Positions 45,333 through 55,464 of a stretch of 64,000 bases of DNA are shown one piece after another (within the stretch, counting starts at the first letter, position 1; each line of letters starts with the position of its first letter). Position numbers and translations under genes: made by a program. The stretch covers positions 2,914,001 to 2,978,000 of the forward strand of contig NC_013922.1 in the NCBI RefSeq assembly GCF_000025625.1. Reading direction: 5' to 3'. The stretch comes from Natrialba magadii ATCC 43099 (lineage in GTDB: Archaea > Halobacteriota > Halobacteria > Halobacteriales > Natrialbaceae). Below the pieces are notes generated by a model that saw only the letters and a program-made list of their open reading frames with translations, had not been told where the DNA came from and did not search any database.

Positions 45333-46076
45333 ATGATCGCGAGCGAAACGATCCTCACGGGATCCGGACTGGCACTGCTCGTCGGTGCCGGCGGCTTCGC
45401 ACTCGGAGCGCGAGCGCTCCCCGCAGCGACGCGCCGATTCGGCTACGCGGTCGTTCTCGCCTGTGCGGGTATGGGGGTTGCGTACCTGCTCATGGCGGCC
45501 GGCGTCCTCACCGTTACGACCTCCGGCCGCGAAGAGTCTGCCGTCCGGTTCCTCGGCTACTCGGTCGCAATGACCGTCGGTAGCGTCGTCATCGGTGCAC
45601 TCGCCGGCGCGAGTACCCGGCGAACAGGTGCACTCGTCGGTGGGAACCTGCTGGCAGTCTGGGGAACGCTCGGAAGCTGGGTGTTCAGCGGAACCGGTGA
45701 AACCGTCGCCACAGTCCTCATCCTGGTGTCGTTTCTCGGCGTCGCCGTACTCCTCCTCGGACCGATGGCACGCACTGCCAGGACGGTCCACGCCGAACGC
45801 ACGCTCCTCTACGGCAAACTCAGAAACCTGGTGTTGCTCGCCTGGGCCAGCCTGATCGTCCTCGGCGCGATTTCGGCGCAGACGCTCGGCCTCACCGACG
45901 CCTTCGTCGGCCAGCTCGCCGCGACCTACGTCGACCTCGTCTTCCTGTTTGGCTTCGGCTTGCTCCTCTTTCGGAACGCCGACGCACTCGAGTACATCGG
46001 GACCGCTGGGGACGCCGACACTGGGTCGCAGTCAGGCGATGAGCCGTACGCGAGCACGGGTGTGAGCGGCAGGTGA
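45333..46076 (+). CDS. SRII-like opsin lacking the retinal-binding lysine, copy 1
   Basis: A 247-residue seven-helix protein collinear without gaps, by my reading, with Natronomonas sensory rhodopsin II. Helix B is AVVLACAGMGVAYLLMAAGV, helix F LRNLVLLAWASLIVLGAIS, helix G AATYVDLVFLFGFGLLLF. Using SRII numbering, Arg72, Trp171, Tyr199 and Asp201 are kept. Lys205 is Leu, the counterion Asp75 is Gly, Trp76 is Tyr, Tyr174 is Leu and Thr204 is Phe. The only lysine lies at residue 162 near the cytoplasmic end of helix F. Retinal cannot be bound covalently. Next gene is an HtrII-like transducer, 179 bp on. Confidence 0.85.
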   Translation: MIASETILTGSGLALLVGAGGFALGARALPAATRRFGYAVVLACAGMGVAYLLMAAGVLTVTTSGREESAVRFLGYSVAMTVGSVVIGALAGASTRRTGALVGGNLLAVWGTLGSWVFSGTGETVATVLILVSFLGVAVLLLGPMARTARTVHAERTLLYGKLRNLVLLAWASLIVLGAISAQTLGLTDAFVGQLAATYVDLVFLFGFGLLLFRNADALEYIGTAGDADTGSQSGDEPYASTGVSGR

Positions 46077-46255
46077 GCGGTGGTCCACGACGGGGGTCGA
46101 CGCACCGTCGTGCATGCCCGACCCACATGAAGCGAGCTATCGCGGCGGCAATAACGGTTATCAGGTGGCAGTGAGACGTCTATCCCAGGATGGGAGCCAG
46201 CAGTCCGTCCTGTCGGACGGGCTCGCTCCGAAGATGCATGAGGGAAGATCACGGG

Positions 46256-47899
46256 ATGCAATTCGATTCACTACTACCAGCACGGATTCGCCAACAGTAC
46301 AGTGTCAAGATCGCCGGTGCGCTCGGTTTCGTCGCCGTCGTGACGATCGGGTTCGGTGTCCTGTTCGGACTCCATATCGTCAGCGGTCCGACCGAGGGAC
46401 TGCAAGAACGTGCCATCGCCGGACTGACCGGACTGCTCGTGATTTTCTCGGTCAATCTCGGGCTCGTCGGGATCGTCCTCGGCGGCAACGTCGCGCTCTC
46501 GCTGCGCCAGCTTGGCGAGCGAACCGAGCGGATCGGGGACGGCGAGTTCGACGTCGACCTCGAAACCGATCGAGTCGACGAGATCGGCCAACTCTACAAC
46601 TCTGTCGACACGATGCGCGACTCGCTCGAGACGACACTCGAGGAGGTCGAGGCCGAGCAGGAACGTGCGGAGACGGCACAGGCGGAGGCCGAAGAGCAAG
46701 CCGCCCAGCTCGAAGAAGAACGCGAGCGGATTCAGGACCTCCAGCATCAGGCCGAACAGCAGAACCAGGAACTCGTCGCGGAAGCCCAGCGCTTCTCTGA
46801 CGTGATGGACGAGTGTGCGGCCGGTGACCTCAGCCAGCGTCTGGCTCCGCAGACGGACGACGAAGCGATGCAGGCGATTGCAGACTCGTTCAACCGGATG
46901 CTCGATCGGATTGGCGACGTCGTCGCCGAAGTGCAGGACGCGAGCGAGACAGTCGACGAGATGTCCGGCGACCTGCAGGGTTCGAGCCAGCAGATTCGTG
47001 CCGCCAGTCAGGAAGTCGCCGAGTCAGTCCAGGAGATCGCAGACGGCGCGACGAGCCAGACCGAGGACCTCGAACTCGCCGCCAGCGAGGTCAGCGACCT
47101 CTCTGCAGCCACGGAGGAAGTTGCAGCGACCACCTCCGAGATCGCGACCCAGTCCGAGGGGATGGCGACGCTGGCCGACGACGGCCAGGACGCCGCCGCC
47201 GACGCCGCACAGAACATCGACCAGCTCGTCGAGACGACTGAAACCGTCGTCGAAACGGTCGAGGAACTCAACGAGGAGGCCGCCCAGATCGGCGAAGTGA
47301 TCTCCCTCATCGACGACATCGCCGATCAGACGAACCTGCTCGCGCTCAACGCGAACGTCGAAGCCGCCCGCGCCGACGAGAGCGGTGACGGGTTCGCAGT
47401 CGTCGCGAACGAGATCAAATCGCTCGCCGAGGAAACCATGGACGCCGTCGACGAAATCGAAGGGACACTCGAGTCCATCCGTGATCGGACGGGGACGACC
47501 GCAGAGGAGATCACGATGGTCGACTCGAACATCAAGACGACGGCAACGCGCGTCGACGAGTTGCAGTCCCAACTCGAGACGATCAGTTCCGAGGCGGACC
47601 AGATGGACGCGAGTATTCAGGAGATTACGCAGACGGCGGACGACCAGGCCAGTTCGGCACAGGAGCTTGCGACGATCGTCGACGACGTGACGAGCGTGTC
47701 GGCGGAGACGAGCAGTCAGGCCGAGCAGGTCGCAGCAGCCTCCGAGGAGACGACGGCGACGACGGAGAGCGTCTCGACGATGGCGGGCGACCTGGACGAG
47801 CAGGCACAGCGGTTGAACGGGTTGATGGAGACGTTCACGATCGATCGCCGAGCCCAGTCTGCTGGGGCGGCCGCTGTCGCGCGAACGGGAGACGACTAA
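46256..47899 (+). CDS. HtrII-like methyl-accepting transducer
   Basis: A 547-residue chemoreceptor with two membrane helices ([40 protein letters not shown]) joined by a short loop and no outer ligand domain, the layout of Natronomonas HtrII. Asn67 in [14 protein letters not shown] matches HtrII Asn74, which bonds SRII Tyr199. HAMP repeats follow ([39 protein letters not shown]). The signalling tip is [20 protein letters not shown]. Start at 46256 aligns with the HtrII N-terminus; in-frame ATG at 46190 is possible. Flanked on both sides by lysine-less opsins. Confidence 0.88.
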
Positions 47900-47986
47900 C
47901 CCGTCTCGTCGCTTCCTGACCAGTACCGAAGTCGACCAGACCAGCACACCAACCACCAACACACCAACATCAGAACCATATCTACG

Positions 47987-48733
47987 ATGATCGAACACAC
48001 CACGACGTTTGTATTGACGAGCACGATTCTTGCAGTGATGACAGCGGTCTTCCTGCTGTGGACTCGGCGACTCGAGGACGGATCGCGGCGGCTCGGCTAC
48101 GCGGTCGTCGCCGCCTGTGGAGCGATGAGCGTCGCGTACCTGCTCATGGCTGCGGGCGTGCTGTCCGTGTCGACGACCGGGCGAGACGAGTCCATCGCGC
48201 GGTTCCTCGGCTACTCGGTCGCCTGGGGCGCAGTCTGTTACGTGATCGGGATGATCGCCGACGCAGAACGGCGGTATACACTCCTCCTGCTCGGCGGGAT
48301 CCTGCTAAGTCTCTGGGCGACCGTAGGAAGCTGGATACTCGGCGGGGCAGCGGGTACCGTCCTCACACTCGCGATCGTGGCCGGAGTCAGTGTGATGGGG
48401 GGCGTTCTATACGGCCCACTCGCACGCGAGGCACAGACCGTGAGCAGCGAGCGAACGCTGCTGTACGGGCGACTCAAGAATCTGACTATGCTCGTCTTCG
48501 TCGGCCTCCTCACAACCGGGATGCTCTCCGCACAGAATCTCGGGTTTACCGACGCCTTCATCGGACAGGCCCTCGCGACCTACCTTGATTTCGTCTGGCT
48601 TGCAGGCTTTGGCGGACTGGTACTCCGGAGTAGAGCTGCGCTGTCGGATGCTGGCAACGAGCGCGACGCCACGGAAGCGACGGGATCGAACGCTGAACGC
48701 GTTGCCGTCGGGACGGCACAGTCTGCCGACTGA
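47987..48733 (+). CDS. SRII-like opsin lacking the retinal-binding lysine, copy 2
   Basis: A 248-residue paralogue of the opsin-like protein at 45333, identical to it in many segments (VAYLLMAAGV, RFLGYSVA, ERTLLYG). Arg72, Tyr199 and Asp201 are retained in SRII numbering. Lys205 is Leu (TYLDFVWLAGFGGLVL), Asp75 is Gly, Trp171 is Phe, Tyr174 is Leu, Thr204 is Trp. The only lysine is at position 164. It begins 87 bp after the transducer stop on the same strand, so one opsin-transducer-opsin operon is likely. Confidence 0.85.
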   Translation: MIEHTTTFVLTSTILAVMTAVFLLWTRRLEDGSRRLGYAVVAACGAMSVAYLLMAAGVLSVSTTGRDESIARFLGYSVAWGAVCYVIGMIADAERRYTLLLLGGILLSLWATVGSWILGGAAGTVLTLAIVAGVSVMGGVLYGPLAREAQTVSSERTLLYGRLKNLTMLVFVGLLTTGMLSAQNLGFTDAFIGQALATYLDFVWLAGFGGLVLRSRAALSDAGNERDATEATGSNAERVAVGTAQSAD

Positions 48734-48822
48734 CTGCGAGCGCGAACCCGTCACAGCAGGCCCACAACCACAACGACAGCAACGGAGTGTTTTCGGCAGC
48801 GAAATCGAGACGTGAGAAGAGC

Positions 48823-48887
48823 GGCCGAGACGAAAGAAGAACAGATCCAGGCGAGAGAAGAGTAGGCCGAGACGAAAGAAGAACAGA
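48823..48887. repeat. two 23-bp direct repeats
   Basis: GGCCGAGACGAAAGAAGAAC followed by AGA occurs at 48823-48845 and 48865-48887, embedded in purine-rich sequence between the convergent opsin and HemAT genes. Confidence 0.8.
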
Positions 48888-48943
48888 CTCAGACAAAAAG
48901 GAGCGCAAACAGAACAGTTGCGACAGCGCGACGACGCGCGTGG

Positions 48944-50524
48944 CTACGTCGATACCGTCTCGTCCGCGAGTCGGCCGACCTCGGACTCGATTTCGTCCAC
49001 CAGCTCGTCGACCTGCTCGTTCTGACCGACGATCGCCTCGATTTCGGTTGCGACCTCGTGTGACTGTTCCATCGCGGTGTCGGTCATGCTCGCGACCTCT
49101 TCGGTGCTTGCCGCCTGGTCGTCAGTCGCCATCGCGACCTCCTGAATACCAGTACTCGCCTCCTGGACGGATTCCTCGATGCGCTCTAAGTTGTCGACCG
49201 TCTCCTCAACCAGCCCGACGCCGCTTTCGATCTCCTCGTTTGCCGTCTCGAGACTATCAACCGTCTCCTCGGTATCCGCCTGGATCTGGTCGATCATCCG
49301 TTCGATGTTCTTGGCTTCGTCCTGCGATTCTTCGGCCAGGGACTTGACCTCGTTTGCGACGACCGCGAACCCGTCTCCTGCTTCGCCCGCCGTCGCCGCC
49401 TCGATCGACGCATTGAGCGCGAGCAGATTCGTCTGGTCGGCGATATCGTTGATCACATCCACGATTTCGTCGATCTTCTGGACGCTCTCGCGCAAGTCCT
49501 CGACGTCGTCGGTCACCTCGTCCGCCGCATCGTCGACGACCGCCATCTTGTCGATCGCTTCCTCGGCCGTCTCCGTCGTGTCGTTCGCGATTTCCTCCGC
49601 GCGCTCGCTGGTTGCGCTGACCTCCTCGGCGTTCGAGGCAATCTCCTCGACCGTCGCCGATAGTCCCGCTACTTCGCCCGAAATCTCGCCCATCGCGTCG
49701 GACTGTTGGGCCGCCAGGTCGCTGATCTCGTCGGAACGGTCGGAGACCTCTACCGAACGCTCGCGGAGCTCGGTGACTGACGACTGGACGTTCTTCGAGA
49801 CCTCGGTCCGGTGCTCGAGTTCGTCCTCGATATCGGCGTAGGCGTCGATGTAGGTGTCCATCGCGATCTGCTGGTCGACGTTCAGTAGTTTGAGCGCAGA
49901 GAGCGATCGCTCGACAACGTCGTCGACCATCTCCTGGGCGTCGGAGAGGGGCACGAGCGGCTCATCCTGGGATGGGGCTGTCGACGACTCCGCGGACAGC
50001 TCTGTCTCCGTTTCGGGTGCATCCTCGACAGCCGTACTGGCGAGGTCGTCCATCGCTTCGTCCGCAAGCGCCGTCAGAATCCCCTCGTAGTAGATCGAAT
50101 AGCCGCCGAGATAGAACTTCGGCCCCATGTCCAGCATATCGTGAATCTTGCCGATCCTGGCACGGCGCTCGGCGTACGCCGTCCCGTACTCACCACGACC
50201 GATATCCATGAGATACTCATACTGGGTCCGCTCGAGTGCATCGACGGATTTCGAGGACGAGTTGAGAATCGCAGTGGCGTCGGCGTTCGACTGGAGGTGG
50301 GAGTAGAACTCAGCGACGAGGTCATCCGCAATCTCCTCGAGAAGCGGCGCCATCGACTCGAGTCGATCGGCATCGGTCTCATCGAAGCCGACGAACTCCT
50401 TTCGCCACTCGAGTTCACGGCGATCGAGCCCGATCCGGTCGGTAAGGTCACGTCCGTCGACCTGCCGTCTGTTGTGCTCGTCGATTGTAGCCTGCGCCTG
50501 ACGCTCGTCCTGGTGGGTAGGCAT
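48944..50524 (-). CDS. hemAT: globin-coupled aerotaxis transducer HemAT
   Basis: A 526-residue soluble transducer. The N-terminal globin sensor (about 25-185) has the proximal heme ligand His128 in [20 protein letters not shown] and the B-helix region [16 protein letters not shown]. The C-terminal signalling domain is a long coiled coil with the tip [20 protein letters not shown]. There are no membrane helices. In Halobacterium HemAT mediates aerophobic responses to oxygen. It ends in the conserved motif region without a pentapeptide tether. Its signalling region is nearly identical in DNA to the paralogue at 51572. Confidence 0.9.
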
Positions 50525-50804
50525 TGTCTCGACATTCCGGCGATCCGAACATATACTTACTGGCGGCGGTGGAGTTCACAGGCGTTCTCGGTTTGGAATG
50601 TGGTCAGGGACGAGGACTGAATCTGGGTCAGGTCTGGAACTGAGTCTGTGCTCGAGCTGGAGCCAGGGTTTCGAAACGCGACCGAAGCCAACCGCACCGT
50701 CAGATCAGGACCACTCAGTGTCACCAACTGGTAGCCACTGAATAGCAAACTGTGGCTGTACTCGAGTGCCGTTCGGTCGGTGCCGACCCGAGCCGGCGGA
50801 GCAA

Positions 50805-51338
50805 TTAAATACGAACGGCAGTCGGGTCGATCCACAGCACGAACTCGTCGTTCTGGCGGACGATGCCGGCGATTCCGTCGCCATCGACGGACGTATCGAC
50901 TGTCGTCGCGTCGATCTGGCGTACCTGTCGGACTTCGTCGGCGAGCCAACCGATTCGGTCGGTCGAGTCACGCTTTCGTTTGAAGACGATGATCCGATTA
51001 CCGAGGTCGTCGTTCTCGTTCTCGCCGAAGATCGTTCGCAGGTTGACGATCTTCGTCGTCTCGCCTCGGAGGTCCATCACGCCCTCGACGTGGTCGGGCG
51101 TGTTCGGGATCGCGGTCAGTTCGTCGGTGTTGACAATCTCCGCGACGTAGCCGATGTCGACGCAGTAGCGGTTCTCGCCGAGGTCGAACTCGAGGACGTG
51201 GACGCTGAGGTCGTCGGGTGTGGCTGTGTTGGTGGGCGTGTTGGTGTCTGTATTGCTGTTCGTATTCGCGCTCGTCTCCGTATTCGTAGTCGTCTCGTCG
51301 GTCGCGTTCGATTGTGTGGATTGGTTCGTAGATACCAT
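50805..51338 (-). CDS. cheW: chemotaxis coupling protein CheW1
   Basis: A 177-residue CheW. After about 40 Asn/Thr-rich residues the SH3-like fold begins: VHVLEFDLGENRYCVDIGYV, then TPDHVEGVMDLRGETTKIVN, the hallmark region for receptor and CheA contact, and IDATTVDTSVDGDGIAGIVR. It links the transducers to CheA. It lies between HemAT and its paralogue on the same strand. Confidence 0.9.
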   Translation of the reverse strand: MVSTNQSTQSNATDETTTNTETSANTNSNTDTNTPTNTATPDDLSVHVLEFDLGENRYCVDIGYVAEIVNTDELTAIPNTPDHVEGVMDLRGETTKIVNLRTIFGENENDDLGNRIIVFKRKRDSTDRIGWLADEVRQVRQIDATTVDTSVDGDGIAGIVRQNDEFVLWIDPTAVRI

Positions 51339-51354
51339 GGCAGTTCGGTGGGTG

Positions 51355-51535
51355 GGTGGTGATCGGTGGTCGGTAGTCGGTAGTCGTGGTCGGTGGTCAG
51401 TGGTCGGTGATCGGTGGTCAGTGGTCGGTGATCGGTGGTCAGTGGTCGGTGGTCGGTAGTCGTGGTCGGTGGTCGGTAGTCGTGGTCGGTGGTCGGTAGT
51501 CGTGGTCGGTAATCGGCGGTCAGTAGTCGATGGCC
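51355..51535. repeat. GGTCGGT/AGTCGTGGTCGGTG simple repeat
   Basis: About 180 bp of imperfect GGTCGGT, GGTCAGT and AGTCGTGGTCGGTGGTCGGT units between cheW1 and the next transducer. Confidence 0.9.
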
Positions 51536-51571
51536 GATGATATGCCGTGCAAGAGAGCGCTCAGCGATGCG

Positions 51572-53233
51572 CTACTCGTCCGCAGAGAGACTGCGAACAT
51601 CGGCTTCAACCTCGTCGACCAGCTCGTCGACGGTCTCGGCGTGGCGTTCGATCGCCTCGAGTCCGTTCGTGACCTGCTGGGACGTCTCCATCGCAGTGTC
51701 GGTCATGCTCGCGACCTCTTCGGTGCTTGCCGCCTGGTCGTCGGTCGCCGTCGCGACCTCCTGAATGCCCGTGCTTGCCTCCTGGACGGATTCCTCGATA
51801 CGCTCTAAGTTGTCGACCGTCTCCTCGACCAGATCGACACCAGTCGAGACGCGCTCGTTCGCCGTCTCGAGGCTGTCGACCGTCTCCTCGGTATCCGCCT
51901 GAATCTGGTCGATCATCCGTTCGATGTTCTTGGCTTCGTCCTGCGATTCTTCGGCCAGGGACTTGACCTCGTTCGCGACGACTGCGAACCCGTCTCCCGC
52001 TTCGCCCGCCGTCGCCGCTTCGATCGAGGCGTTGAGCGCGAGCAGATTCGTCTGGTCGGCGATATCGTTGATCACGTCCACGATCTCGTCGATCTTCTGG
52101 ACGCTCTCGCGGAGGTTTTCGACGTCGTCAGTCACCTCGACGGCTGCCTCCTCGACGCCTTCGATCTGATCGATCGCTTCCTCGGCCGTCTCCGTCGTGT
52201 CGGTCGCGATTTCCTCGGCGCGCTCGCTGGTGGCACTGACCTCCTCGGCGTTCGAGGCAATCTCCTCAACCGTCGCCGACAGCCCCGAGACCTCACTCGC
52301 AATTTCGTTCATCGAGTTCGACTGCTCGGCCGCGAGATCCGTCATCTCCGCGGTCCGATCGGTCACGTCGGCAGTCGAATCCGAAACCTCACGCAGCGAC
52401 TCCTGAATCCGATCACCGACGGCCTCGCGCTGGCGCTTCGTCTCTACCTGATTCGTGAGTTGCGCTTCGTACTCGGCGATGCGCTCTTCATCTGCTGCCT
52501 GCTGGCTGCGCTGTGCACTGGCGTAGGTCTGCATCGCGAGTTGCTGGTCGACCAGACTGTGGCGCAGCAGCGACAGCGTCCGGGAAACGACGGTGTCGAC
52601 TGCGTCGTCGACGGCTTCTCCAATGGCACCGGACTCGCCAGCAGTCTCAGCGTCAGGCGTCCCAGCATCACCCCCTCCTCCTCCTCCTCCTTCTCCCTCT
52701 CTCTTCCCCTCAAACCCCGCTTTGACGTCCGCCGCAATCGCCTCGAGTGCCTCCTCGTAGTACGCGCCGAACGACCCGATATAGGCGTCAGGCCCTGCTG
52801 CAAGGACCGCCCCAACGGCCGGCGACTCGAGTCGATCCGAGAAAACCGCCACGTCGGTCCGGCCCGCCGCTGCCGCGTCGACGAGGCCGGCCTGGTCCGA
52901 TTCGAGTTGGGCTTTGCTCGCGCCCGACTGCGTCTCGAGTGCACTCGAGACAGCCGGCTTGCGGCTGGCGGCGTCGGCGGACGCTGCGGCGATGTCCGCA
53001 CGGGCGTCTGCGAGGGCGTCCGAGAGCGACTCGAGTCGGGCCTCGTCGTCGGCGTCCAGTGAGACGAAGGTGTTCGCGCGCTCGACGCTGGCGGGGTCGA
53101 TGCCAGTGTTCATGATGGCGTCGACGTCCGCACTCGAGACCGAGGCCGAGGCCGAGCTCAAAGCCGTCCCACCGGAATCAGTGGAATCGGCTGCGGCTTC
53201 GAGACGGGACGCTCCGCCGTCTGTTCTGGGCAT
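51572..53233 (-). CDS. HemAT paralogue with histidine-free globin domain
   Basis: A 553-residue soluble transducer. Residues 48-170 align with the HemAT globin ([39 protein letters not shown]) but the proximal heme histidine is Gly141 and there is no histidine before residue 225. The domain is Ala-rich. A Gly run ([13 protein letters not shown]) links it to the helical part. The signalling tip [20 protein letters not shown] and surroundings equal those of HemAT. A non-heme globin sensor, as in Bacillus RsbR, is the natural reading. Ligand unknown. Confidence 0.82.
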
Positions 53234-53425: not shown

Positions 53426-54673
53426 TCAGTCGATGGTCGCGATGAGTTCGTCGATGTCCAGCCAGGCGACGAGCGTCGTTCGATCCTCGTCGTCCTGCTT
53501 CTTGATGATGCCACGGACGCACTCGTGCTGGTGGTCGCCCGCGGCGTCCATCACGCTGCCCGTCTCATCGATCTGGCTGTCGTGATAGGTGACCGCCTGC
53601 GAGACGTCGGTCACGCGGACGCCGAGCTTTTGCTTGTCGTCGTCGCGTTCTAAGACGACGATGTACTGGTCGTCGGAGAGTTCGTTGTGCTCGACGTCGA
53701 GCATCGTCGTCGGGTCGAGAACACCCGTGATCTCGCCGCGGAGGTCCGTCACGCCGTCGATGGCGGTCGGACCGCGCGGGAACCGCGTGATGTCTTTCAT
53801 CTCGACGATAGCGCTGATCCGATCGATCTCGATGGCGTAGCGGTTCTCGTTCAGGTAGAACTCGAGCATCTGGATTGTCGACTCGCTGTCGTGTGTCGAG
53901 TGGATCAGCGTGTTCCCCTGATCGAACATGGCGTCCTTACGGGCGCTGGTCGCGTCGCCGTACCCCTCGGCATCCGCCATCGTCGCAGAGCCGTCGACGG
54001 TTGGCTCCGCGCTGGTCCCCGTGAGTTCGGCGACGGTGGACTGGCTGGCGATTGCACCACCGAGTGCAGCGAGCGGGCCGTCCGCGCGGGATTCGGATTC
54101 GCCGTCGTCGAACGAGAGCGTAACATCAGTGTCGCCCGTCTCCATCGACGCTTCGGTATCTGTGGTCCCGGCAGCCACCCCTGCAGAGTCAACAGCCGCA
54201 GCATCGCCGGCGGCGTCAGCGCCAGCGGCGTCAGAATCGCCTGCTGTATCCGCAGCTTCTATCGCATCTGCCTCCGAATCGGCCGCGTCCGACCCCTGTT
54301 CGGGTTCGGAACTGGCGTCTGCTGTCTGTTGTCCGTCGCCGCAATTATCGTCACTGTCACCCGTGGCCCTGTCACTGCTCGCTGCTGGTTCGTCGCGTTT
54401 GCCCGCCGATTCGGTACCACTCTCTGTGCTGTCGTCGGCTGCGGACGGGGATTCTGCCGCTGACTCGTCTGCTTCGTCTTGTTCCGCGGTCTCTGCGGTC
54501 TCTGCGGCCTCCGCGGTCTCTGCAGCCTCTGCGGTCTCTGCGGCCTCCGCGGTCTCTGCAGCCTCTGCAGCCTCTGCGGTCTCTGCGGCCTCCGCAGTCT
54601 CTGCTGTCTCACGTGCCCCCCCAGCTGCACGGTTGCGCATCTCCCGAAGTCGACGTGCTCTGTCGTCAGTCAT
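53426..54673 (-). CDS. cheW: CheW2 with long low-complexity N-terminus
   Basis: A 415-residue protein. Residues about 20-65 are Ala-Glu-Thr repeats (AETAEAAETAEAAEAAETAE), followed by an acidic Ser/Ala-rich stretch to about 250. The C-terminal 160 residues are a CheW domain: IQMLEFYLNENRYAIEIDRI, PTAIDGVTDLRGEITGVLDP, VTDVSQAVTYHDSQID. The start ATG overlaps the parA stop in ATGA, so translation is coupled to the ParA ATPase. It likely joins receptor arrays through its CheW part while the extension contacts another partner. Confidence 0.85.
   Translation of the reverse strand: MTDDRARRLREMRNRAAGGARETAETAEAAETAEAAEAAETAEAAETAEAAETAEAAETAETAEQDEADESAAESPSAADDSTESGTESAGKRDEPAASSDRATGDSDDNCGDGQQTADASSEPEQGSDAADSEADAIEAADTAGDSDAAGADAAGDAAAVDSAGVAAGTTDTEASMETGDTDVTLSFDDGESESRADGPLAALGGAIASQSTVAELTGTSAEPTVDGSATMADAEGYGDATSARKDAMFDQGNTLIHSTHDSESTIQMLEFYLNENRYAIEIDRISAIVEMKDITRFPRGPTAIDGVTDLRGEITGVLDPTTMLDVEHNELSDDQYIVVLERDDDKQKLGVRVTDVSQAVTYHDSQIDETGSVMDAAGDHQHECVRGIIKKQDDEDRTTLVAWLDIDELIATID
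54481..54610. repeat. Ala-Glu-Thr coding repeat (TCTGCGGCC/TCCGCGGTC units)
   Basis: Tandem 6- and 9-bp units encode the AETAEA repeats of the CheW2 N-terminus; unit number changes keep the frame. Confidence 0.8.
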
Positions 54674-55464
54674 GCTGGTATCTCCTGTCGTAGCAACTGC
54701 TCGTCTACCTGCTCGGCCATCTCCATGAAGACCGCGCTCATATCCGTCTCTTCTTCCGCCGCAAACACCGACTTCCCCGACGCGAACGCCCGCTGCAACG
54801 CCACACGCTTTCGTATCCGATACAGCGGCACATCCGGCAACGCCTCGTCGAACCACTCGAGCATCTCTGTCGCCGCTCGCGTGTTCTCGATCCGATTCGC
54901 CACTAGCGCCAGCGGCTCGATCGTCACGTCGTGATCCAGCTCCAGTGCACCGACGTAATCGAAGAGCAACTCGAGTGACCGCTTGCTCGTCGGTTCGGCG
55001 AGTGCGGGGATCACGAGATTCTCCGTCGCGTACAGCGCGTTGTCGGTCAGGAGGCCGAGGTGGGGTGAGCAGTCGACGACGGTGACGTCGTACTCGCCCG
55101 CCTCCTCGAGTCGGTCGAGGAGTGCGTCGAGTCGCGTCTCGCCGTCGGGTTCCTGGACGAGCGTGGACTCGGCGGCGTTCATGTCGACGTTGCTCGCGAC
55201 GACGTCCATCTCTGGGTGAGCAGAGACGAGGTCATCGGGGTCGACAGCCGCCGGGTCGACGAGCGCGTCGAGTAGCGACGGCGGTTCGGCGTCGTAGGCC
55301 TCGAGCAGGCCGAGTCCTTCGGTCGCGTTCCCTTGCGGATCGAGGTCGACGAAGAGGACGTTACGTCCGAGTTCGTTCAGCGCACCCGCGAGGTTGATCG
55401 CGACGGTCGTCTTGCCGACGCCTCCTTTCTGATTTGTCACACACAGCCGAGCAGCTCCCGCCAT
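54670..55464 (-). CDS. parA: ParA/MinD-type ATPase coupled to CheW2
   Basis: A 264-residue deviant Walker ATPase: CVTNQKGGVGKTTVAINLAG with signature Lys13 and Lys18, switch FVDLDPQGNATEGLGLL and Walker B VTVVDCSPHLGLLTDN. ATG at 55464 is chosen over an upstream in-frame codon. No parB or centromere-like array is visible and the next gene is a CheW, overlapping by four bases. By analogy with the bacterial ParC-ParP system it may position chemosensory arrays. Confidence 0.85.
   Translation of the reverse strand: MAGAARLCVTNQKGGVGKTTVAINLAGALNELGRNVLFVDLDPQGNATEGLGLLEAYDAEPPSLLDALVDPAAVDPDDLVSAHPEMDVVASNVDMNAAESTLVQEPDGETRLDALLDRLEEAGEYDVTVVDCSPHLGLLTDNALYATENLVIPALAEPTSKRSLELLFDYVGALELDHDVTIEPLALVANRIENTRAATEMLEWFDEALPDVPLYRIRKRVALQRAFASGKSVFAAEEETDMSAVFMEMAEQVDEQLLRQEIPA

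What the first reader, a model, noticed from the sequence alone, without database searches (positions are those of the whole stretch)
45333..53233. Cluster of sensors that lost their cofactor sites
Within 8 kb, three of the five sensor domains or sensor proteins (two opsins, one globin) are paralogues of cofactor-binding sensors lacking the attachment residue, while signalling parts are intact. The coincidence suggests selection for cofactor-free versions, perhaps for sensing lipophilic compounds, membrane potential or salt stress, or as regulators of normal paralogues elsewhere.
Basis: inference. Interest (0 to 1): 0.7.

Follow-up and report, generated by a model that had tools for sequence, protein, structure and literature searches.

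The report
Retinal-free opsins beside heme-free globin chemoreceptor
A salt-loving archaeon carries, inside its main swimming-control gene cluster, two light-receptor relatives that cannot hold their pigment and an oxygen-receptor relative that cannot hold its heme; the first pair is already described in the literature, the second is a maintained family I found no description of, and the two ended up side by side through separate histories rather than one shared cause.

Summary
Both opsins (45333-46076, 47987-48733) have Leu at the retinal-lysine position and have lost the counter-ion and pocket residues, but keep the transducer-contact residues. The MCP at 51572-53233 is a HemAT paralogue with Gly in place of the proximal His. 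The neighbouring HemAT (48944-50524) is canonical; the MCP between the opsins is HtrII-type. The interpretation mostly fails. (1) The opsins are 'opsin-related proteins' (group B of Becker 2016), already reported for Natrialba magadii, whose genome this matches; they inherit one old loss. (2) The globin is separate: orthologues without the His sit in the che cluster of 15 sampled Natrialbaceae genomes, 8 of which have no opsins there, while G103 has the opsin cassette but no such globin. (3) The genome's only canonical opsin is a halorhodopsin; there is no SRI/SRII/BR and no brp/blh. The less-known part is the globin receptor: AlphaFold gives the HemAT fold (Z 14.6), selection is purifying, heme-ligand residues are lost, and its signalling domain is homogenised with HemAT's by gene conversion. 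Most likely it is a heme-free globin chemoreceptor for a non-gas signal; the ligand is unknown.

The parts
45333..46076 (+). opsin 1: retinal-lysine-less opsin (opsin-related protein, group B type), K205->L
   Evidence: Pfam/PDB matches and residue table; orthologues in 3 of 7 Natrialba, a relative at the same position in G103
46256..47899 (+). HtrII-type two-TM + HAMP + MCP transducer between the opsins (ORF from 46190; likely start 46256)
   Evidence: NpHtrII in PDB E 3.6e-25 with the GINLGLV/SVNLGLV TM2 motif; HAMP and MCPsignal
47987..48733 (+). opsin 2: retinal-lysine-less opsin, K205->L
   Evidence: AlphaFold pLDDT 84, best PDB fold NpSRII 3qap TMt 0.89
48944..50524 (-). canonical HemAT aerotaxis transducer, proximal His (H128) and distal Tyr (Y74) kept
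   Evidence: Protoglobin 99.8 bits; RIGKIH motif
50805..51338 (-). CheW (a), directly downstream of the heme-less globin MCP in every orthologous locus long enough to show it
   Evidence: CheW E 3e-26; synteny
51572..53233 (-). heme-less globin-coupled MCP (His->Gly at residue 141, distal Tyr->Ala at residue 86)
   Evidence: AlphaFold pLDDT 87, HemAT-Bs 1or4 Z 14.6
52448..53128 (-). heme-less globin sensor domain used for the structure model (with Gly-rich loop, aa 36-262 of the protein)
53426..54856 (-). CheW (b) with a long acidic EAAETA-repeat N-terminal extension (start uncertain)
   Evidence: CheW E 3e-22 at residues 329-473

Best explanation
The region is the receptor section of the main che/archaellum cluster of a Natrialba genome and holds two unrelated kinds of cofactor-free receptor that share one CheA/CheW pathway. 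(A) Opsin 1 - HtrII-type transducer - opsin 2 is an operon-like membrane receptor: retinal-free opsins sense a non-light stimulus and pass a conformational change through the SRII/HtrII contact to the transducer. (B) The MCP at 51572-53233 is a soluble, heme-free globin receptor derived from a HemAT-like ancestor: it keeps the globin-coupled-sensor fold, has lost the heme ligands, and probably reports binding of a small non-gas ligand, or a physicochemical change, through the same helix movement that HemAT uses. Gene conversion keeps its signalling domain interchangeable with HemAT's. The two are neighbours because the che cluster collects receptors, not because of one selective cause. Shown here: homology, residue losses, predicted fold, purifying selection, separate histories, MCP homogenisation. 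Inferred: that B binds no heme in vivo, the nature of the stimuli, the signalling direction.
For: Opsin residue pattern and clade; published spectra without a retinal peak for an N. magadii ORP (PMC4915679); HtrII homology. Globin: 15 of 15 orthologues lack the proximal His (Gly, Ala, Glu or Pro) and none has Tyr in the distal-Tyr column (five have a Tyr one column earlier), against 26 of 26 HemATs with both; one clade, 99% SH-aLRT, together with a sister clade that always has Asp; fold; dN/dS. Decoupling. MCP homogenisation: HemAT and heme-less MCP cores of one genome are 88-98% identical in DNA (98% in G039) and cluster by lineage, not by sensor type; at least 4 label changes are forced by starred branches, whereas the sensor-domain tree separates the types cleanly. 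Precedents for heme-independent globin sensing: RsbR non-heme globin (PMC4976288) and ethanol binding by B. subtilis HemAT without the heme (PMC7542364).
Against: No expression, ligand or deletion data for the globin receptor. dN/dS of its sensor (0.33) is the highest of the set, so constraint is weaker. The former His position varies between orthologues, so nothing points to a specific replacement ligand. Non-covalent retinal, or heme bound through another residue, is not formally excluded.
Confidence: 0.75

Rival explanations
1. One selective pressure (for example lack of cofactor, alkaline brine, lipophilic signals) favoured cofactor-free versions of several sensors in this cluster.
For: Three cofactor-less sensors within 8 kb; all 7 Natrialba genomes lack Brp/Blh; genome-level co-occurrence p = 0.006.
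Against: The losses are separate and older than the neighbourhood; the two kinds are unlinked outside Natrialba; genus-level p = 0.14; canonical HemAT stays intact next door, so heme is not limiting; a halorhodopsin is kept and an alternative carotene cleaver is reported (PMC3403918).
Confidence: 0.1
2. The heme-less globin MCP is a modulator of HemAT, forming mixed dimers or mixed trimers of dimers, and has no ligand of its own.
For: Adjacent genes in Natrialba and G039; MCP domains kept nearly identical by gene conversion; the homodimer-forming globin fold is kept.
Against: In G012, G095, G096, G010 and G038 it sits in the che cluster without a HemAT beside it, although other protoglobin receptors exist elsewhere in those genomes; sensor domains have diverged strongly (about 28% identity).
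Confidence: 0.2
3. The sensors are decaying relics.
For: Opsin 1 is absent in 4 of 7 Natrialba; the globin orthologue of G046 has a frameshift in a draft assembly; the globin has the highest dN/dS.
Against: Open frames, dN/dS well under 1, conserved contact residues, conserved synteny over several genera.
Confidence: 0.04
4. They bind their cofactors in another way (non-covalent retinal; heme through another ligand such as Glu, Asp or Tyr).
For: Opsins of this type were never tested with every chromophore (PMC4915679); other globin clades have invariant Asp (9/9) or Tyr (4/4) at the His position.
Against: The retinal pocket and counter-ion are lost; an N. magadii ORP showed no absorption with retinal; in the heme-less clade the position varies (Gly, Ala, Pro, Glu) and the distal Tyr is gone too.
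Confidence: 0.06

Closest known systems
Opsin-related proteins (ORPs), group B (Becker et al. 2016, PMC4915679); Nmag_2879 and Nmag_2881 of N. magadii (PMC3403918)
   Same: Leu instead of the retinal Lys, Y174->L, W178->G, F127->T/S; Y51, R72, D189, Y199 kept; next to an MCP in the che/fla cluster; the gene order 2879-2884 matches the window
   Different: Nothing essential; these look like the published genes themselves. Added here: the MCP between them is an HtrII homologue flanked by two opsins, of which opsin 1 is absent in 4 of 7 Natrialba.
NpSRII/NpHtrII phototaxis complex
   Same: Fold (TMt 0.89) and transducer homologue (E 3.6e-25) with the contact residues kept
   Different: No Lys, no counter-ion, no retinal pocket; two opsins for one transducer
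HemAT (globin-coupled MCP)
   Same: Domain order, fold (Z 14.6 to HemAT-Bs), nearly identical MCP core
   Different: Proximal His and distal Tyr lost in all 15 orthologues, with other conserved positions around them
RsbR non-heme globin domains of Bacillus stressosomes
   Same: Globin domains without the heme residues that work as sensory input domains
   Different: RsbR has a STAS output, not an MCP; no specific relationship was tested

Membership tests
Group B opsin-related proteins | type 1 opsin homologue without the Schiff-base Lys, hydrophobic residue instead | tested here: met
   Leu in both opsins
Group B opsin-related proteins | retinal pocket residues lost, signalling residues Y51, R72, D189, Y199 kept | tested here: met
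   residue table; criteria from PMC4915679
Group B opsin-related proteins | no retinal binding in the purified protein | not testable with these tools
   published for one N. magadii ORP (WP_004267173); not measured here
HtrII-type transducer | two TM helices, HAMP and MCP homologous to NpHtrII | tested here: met
HemAT heme-based aerotaxis transducers | globin-coupled-sensor fold joined to an MCP domain | tested here: met
HemAT heme-based aerotaxis transducers | proximal His and distal Tyr for heme/O2 (51572-53233) | tested here: not met
   Gly and Ala; 0 of 15 orthologues have them
Non-heme globin sensors (RsbR type) | globin fold without heme ligands as an input domain | tested here: met
   fold and residue loss
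Non-heme globin sensors (RsbR type) | STAS output domain and stressosome assembly | tested here: not met
   output domain is MCPsignal

The most novel reading that the evidence does not exclude
Natrialbaceae use a family of heme-free globin chemoreceptors (at least two clades, with a variable residue or an invariant Asp at the former His position) that perceive a non-gas stimulus, with their signalling domains kept interchangeable with HemAT's by gene conversion, so that old O2-sensor hardware was re-aimed at a new signal.
Probability: 0.55. Interest if true: 0.55.

Novelty: new variant of a known kind. Interest (0 to 1): 0.4.

Why it matters
The opsin half is known and its stimulus is an open question. 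The globin half shows an O2-receptor scaffold kept without heme ligands across several genera inside a core chemotaxis cluster, next to an intact HemAT with an almost identical output domain. That gives a natural sensor-swap pair: one output, heme and heme-free inputs. It makes the question of what a globin senses without heme directly testable in a chemotaxis assay.

Tried and rejected
Brp/Blh absence from the own genome alone was uninformative because no control rang; repeated over 125 family genomes, it rings in 64 but in 0 of 7 Natrialba. PF01036 misses the third lysine-less opsin of the genome (C1:1734533), found only with a protein query. The genome-contig scan with opsin 2 gave only four Natrialba loci. 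The first MCP identity script stopped with an error, and its ungapped matrix is distorted by indels and offsets in G045 and G043; replaced. Htr stops in G042 and G043 were not looked into; they may lie upstream of the start codon. Foldseek E-values for the globin model are weak (best 0.06), so the fold claim rests on probability 1.0, TMt 0.77 and the VIA Z values. Heme-less relatives outside Natrialbaceae: of 12 further loci read from the order-wide search, the 10 from outside the family all have the His, so none was found there, with limited sampling. Literature searches for heme-less MCP globins found none, which covers open-licence papers only. Chance or sequencing error as the cause of the missing residues was rejected on orthologue data.

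Full report
What is there. The window lies on the 3.75 Mb chromosome of a 4.44 Mb, four-contig genome of the genus Natrialba. Its opsin inventory (one halorhodopsin, three lysine-less opsins), the absence of brp/blh and the gene order in the che cluster match the published Natrialba magadii ATCC 43099 genome (PMC3403918). The receptor section holds opsin 1 (+), an HtrII-type transducer (+) and opsin 2 (+), then on the other strand, in transcription order, CheW-b, the heme-less globin MCP, CheW-a and HemAT, with CheR, CheY and a CheC-like gene on one side and ParA, CheB and CheA on the other.

Opsins. Both match NpSRII and both lack the retinal Lys (Leu). They also lack the counter-ion Asp75 (Gly), Trp76 (Tyr), Phe127 (Thr), Tyr174 (Leu) and Trp178 (Gly), while Tyr51, Arg72, Tyr199 and Asp201 are kept and position 189 is Asp, as in other ORPs. 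This is the signature given for group B opsin-related proteins (PMC4915679). The N. magadii genome paper had already noted that Nmag_2879 and Nmag_2881 lack the Lys, and one N. magadii ORP was expressed and gave no retinal band. In a tree of 40 sequences all lysine-less opsins form one side of a supported branch away from SRII and the halorhodopsin (99/95); the two outgroups are long branches, so this support is to be read with care. Lys loss in the two window opsins is therefore most simply one old event. Opsin 2 is present in all seven Natrialba genomes; opsin 1 only in three, and a relative stands in its position in G103. AlphaFold gives a seven-helix fold closest to NpSRII (TMt 0.89). The MCP between them aligns with NpHtrII over TM1, TM2 and HAMP (E 3.6e-25) and keeps the Asn of the TM2 motif. 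The likely start of this gene is 46256.

Globin. The MCP at 48944-50524 is an ordinary HemAT. The MCP at 51572-53233 has the same domain order but a protoglobin domain that scores below Pfam's cut-off, with Gly at the proximal His and Ala at the distal Tyr. Orthologues from 14 further genomes (five genera in all) also lack the His (Gly 6, Ala 5, Glu 2, Pro 2 of 15). Of the columns that are conserved in at least 85% of 26 His-bearing HemATs, the ones lost include the B-helix Phe-Tyr, the proximal His with its Gly-Lys neighbours, an Arg and a Lys; the ones kept (Asp51, Arg54, Leu55, Gly111, Arg121, Pro135, Tyr138, Gly140, Tyr146) look like fold positions (the assignment to pocket or fold is my reading, not a structural measurement). 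Five orthologues from outside Natrialba have a Tyr one column before the distal-Tyr column, so loss of the distal side may be later than loss of the His. In a tree of 86 protoglobin domains the heme-less clade (99% SH-aLRT) joins a second clade with invariant Asp at that position (9 sequences; the pair also 99%); a third set has Tyr (4 sequences). Long branches meet in that tree, so one or two losses of His cannot be told apart. The sample of 86 is biased towards relatives of the query, so 28 of 86 without His is not a frequency. The model of the sensor domain has mean pLDDT 87 and its best structural neighbours are globin-coupled sensors (8h17 Z 14.8, HemAT-Bs 1or4 Z 14.6). Several outgroup members pass Pfam's Protoglobin cut-off on their own, which confirms the homology.

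Maintained, not decayed. Mean pairwise dN/dS in Natrialba is 0.15 (opsin 1), 0.15 (Htr N-terminal part), 0.23 (opsin 2), 0.23 (HemAT sensor) and 0.33 (heme-less sensor). One heme-less orthologue (G046) has a frameshift in a draft assembly and one (G043) contains an assembly gap inside the MCP core.

Shared signalling domain. Over about 500 bp of the MCP core, HemAT and the heme-less MCP of one genome are 88-98% identical (98% in G039, where they cluster with 100/100 support), and in the DNA tree the types are intermixed by lineage, with at least four changes forced, whereas their sensor domains split cleanly. In G045 both are longer in this region by the same amount (558 against 495 bp). Gene conversion is the simplest cause. 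It explains why the 'signalling parts are intact'.

Coincidence tested. In all 12 orthologous loci long enough to show it, the heme-less MCP is followed by CheW-a. Eight of the 15 genomes with it have no opsin in the che locus, and where these genomes do have lysine-less opsins they lie elsewhere (for example 2.3 Mb away in G010); G103 has opsin-Htr-opsin in the che locus and no heme-less globin. Association by genome is p = 0.006 but is driven by the seven Natrialba; by genus it is p = 0.14. The neighbourhood is thus best explained by the che cluster as a collecting place for receptors, with two independent cofactor losses.

Mechanism. For the opsin cassette I follow the published proposal of a non-light sensory receptor, adding that one HtrII-type transducer is flanked by two opsins, one of them absent in several relatives. 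For the globin receptor I propose that ligand or state changes are read by the helices that once enclosed the heme and passed to the MCP stalk. Two precedents exist: Bacillus RsbR has non-heme globin input domains, one crystallised with a fatty acid (PMC4976288), and B. subtilis HemAT senses ethanol through its globin domain without the heme (PMC7542364). The ligand is not known. A role as HemAT partner is the main rival for this protein.

Verdict. Observation confirmed; the shared-cause reading not supported; opsins already known; the heme-less globin MCP family appears undescribed in the papers I could search and is a new variant of a known kind.

Noticed in passing
window 48944-50524 and 51572-53233: MCP cores of HemAT and its heme-less paralogue are about 90% identical in DNA; in relatives up to 98%, with a shared extra length in G045, a sign of gene conversion.
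   Followed up: yes
L037, L038, L041, L074, L075, L126, L128, L130, L164 (globin ORFs): A second clade of protoglobin MCPs with invariant Asp in place of the proximal His, sister to the heme-less clade.
   Followed up: partly
L124 10640-12133, L125 8953-10428, L142, L143: A third set of protoglobin MCPs with invariant Tyr in place of the proximal His, in some loci directly next to a His-bearing HemAT.
   Followed up: partly
window 53426-54856: CheW with a roughly 320-residue acidic N-terminal extension containing EAAETA repeats; start codon uncertain.
   Followed up: no
G000:C1:1734533-1735177 (L116): Third lysine-less opsin of the genome (Ile at the Lys position, Arg in the retinal pocket column 108), missed by Pfam PF01036; belongs to a separate ORP subclade.
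   Followed up: partly
window 48944-50524: The genome paper lists Nmag_2882 as an MCP adjacent to a rhodopsin homologue; by gene order it is the soluble HemAT on the opposite strand, so adjacency to opsin 2 does not imply a pair.
   Followed up: yes
genus Natrialba (G000, G042-G047): All seven genomes lack Brp/Blh (PF15461) although at least the own genome keeps a halorhodopsin; the family is detected in 64 of 125 relatives.
   Followed up: partly
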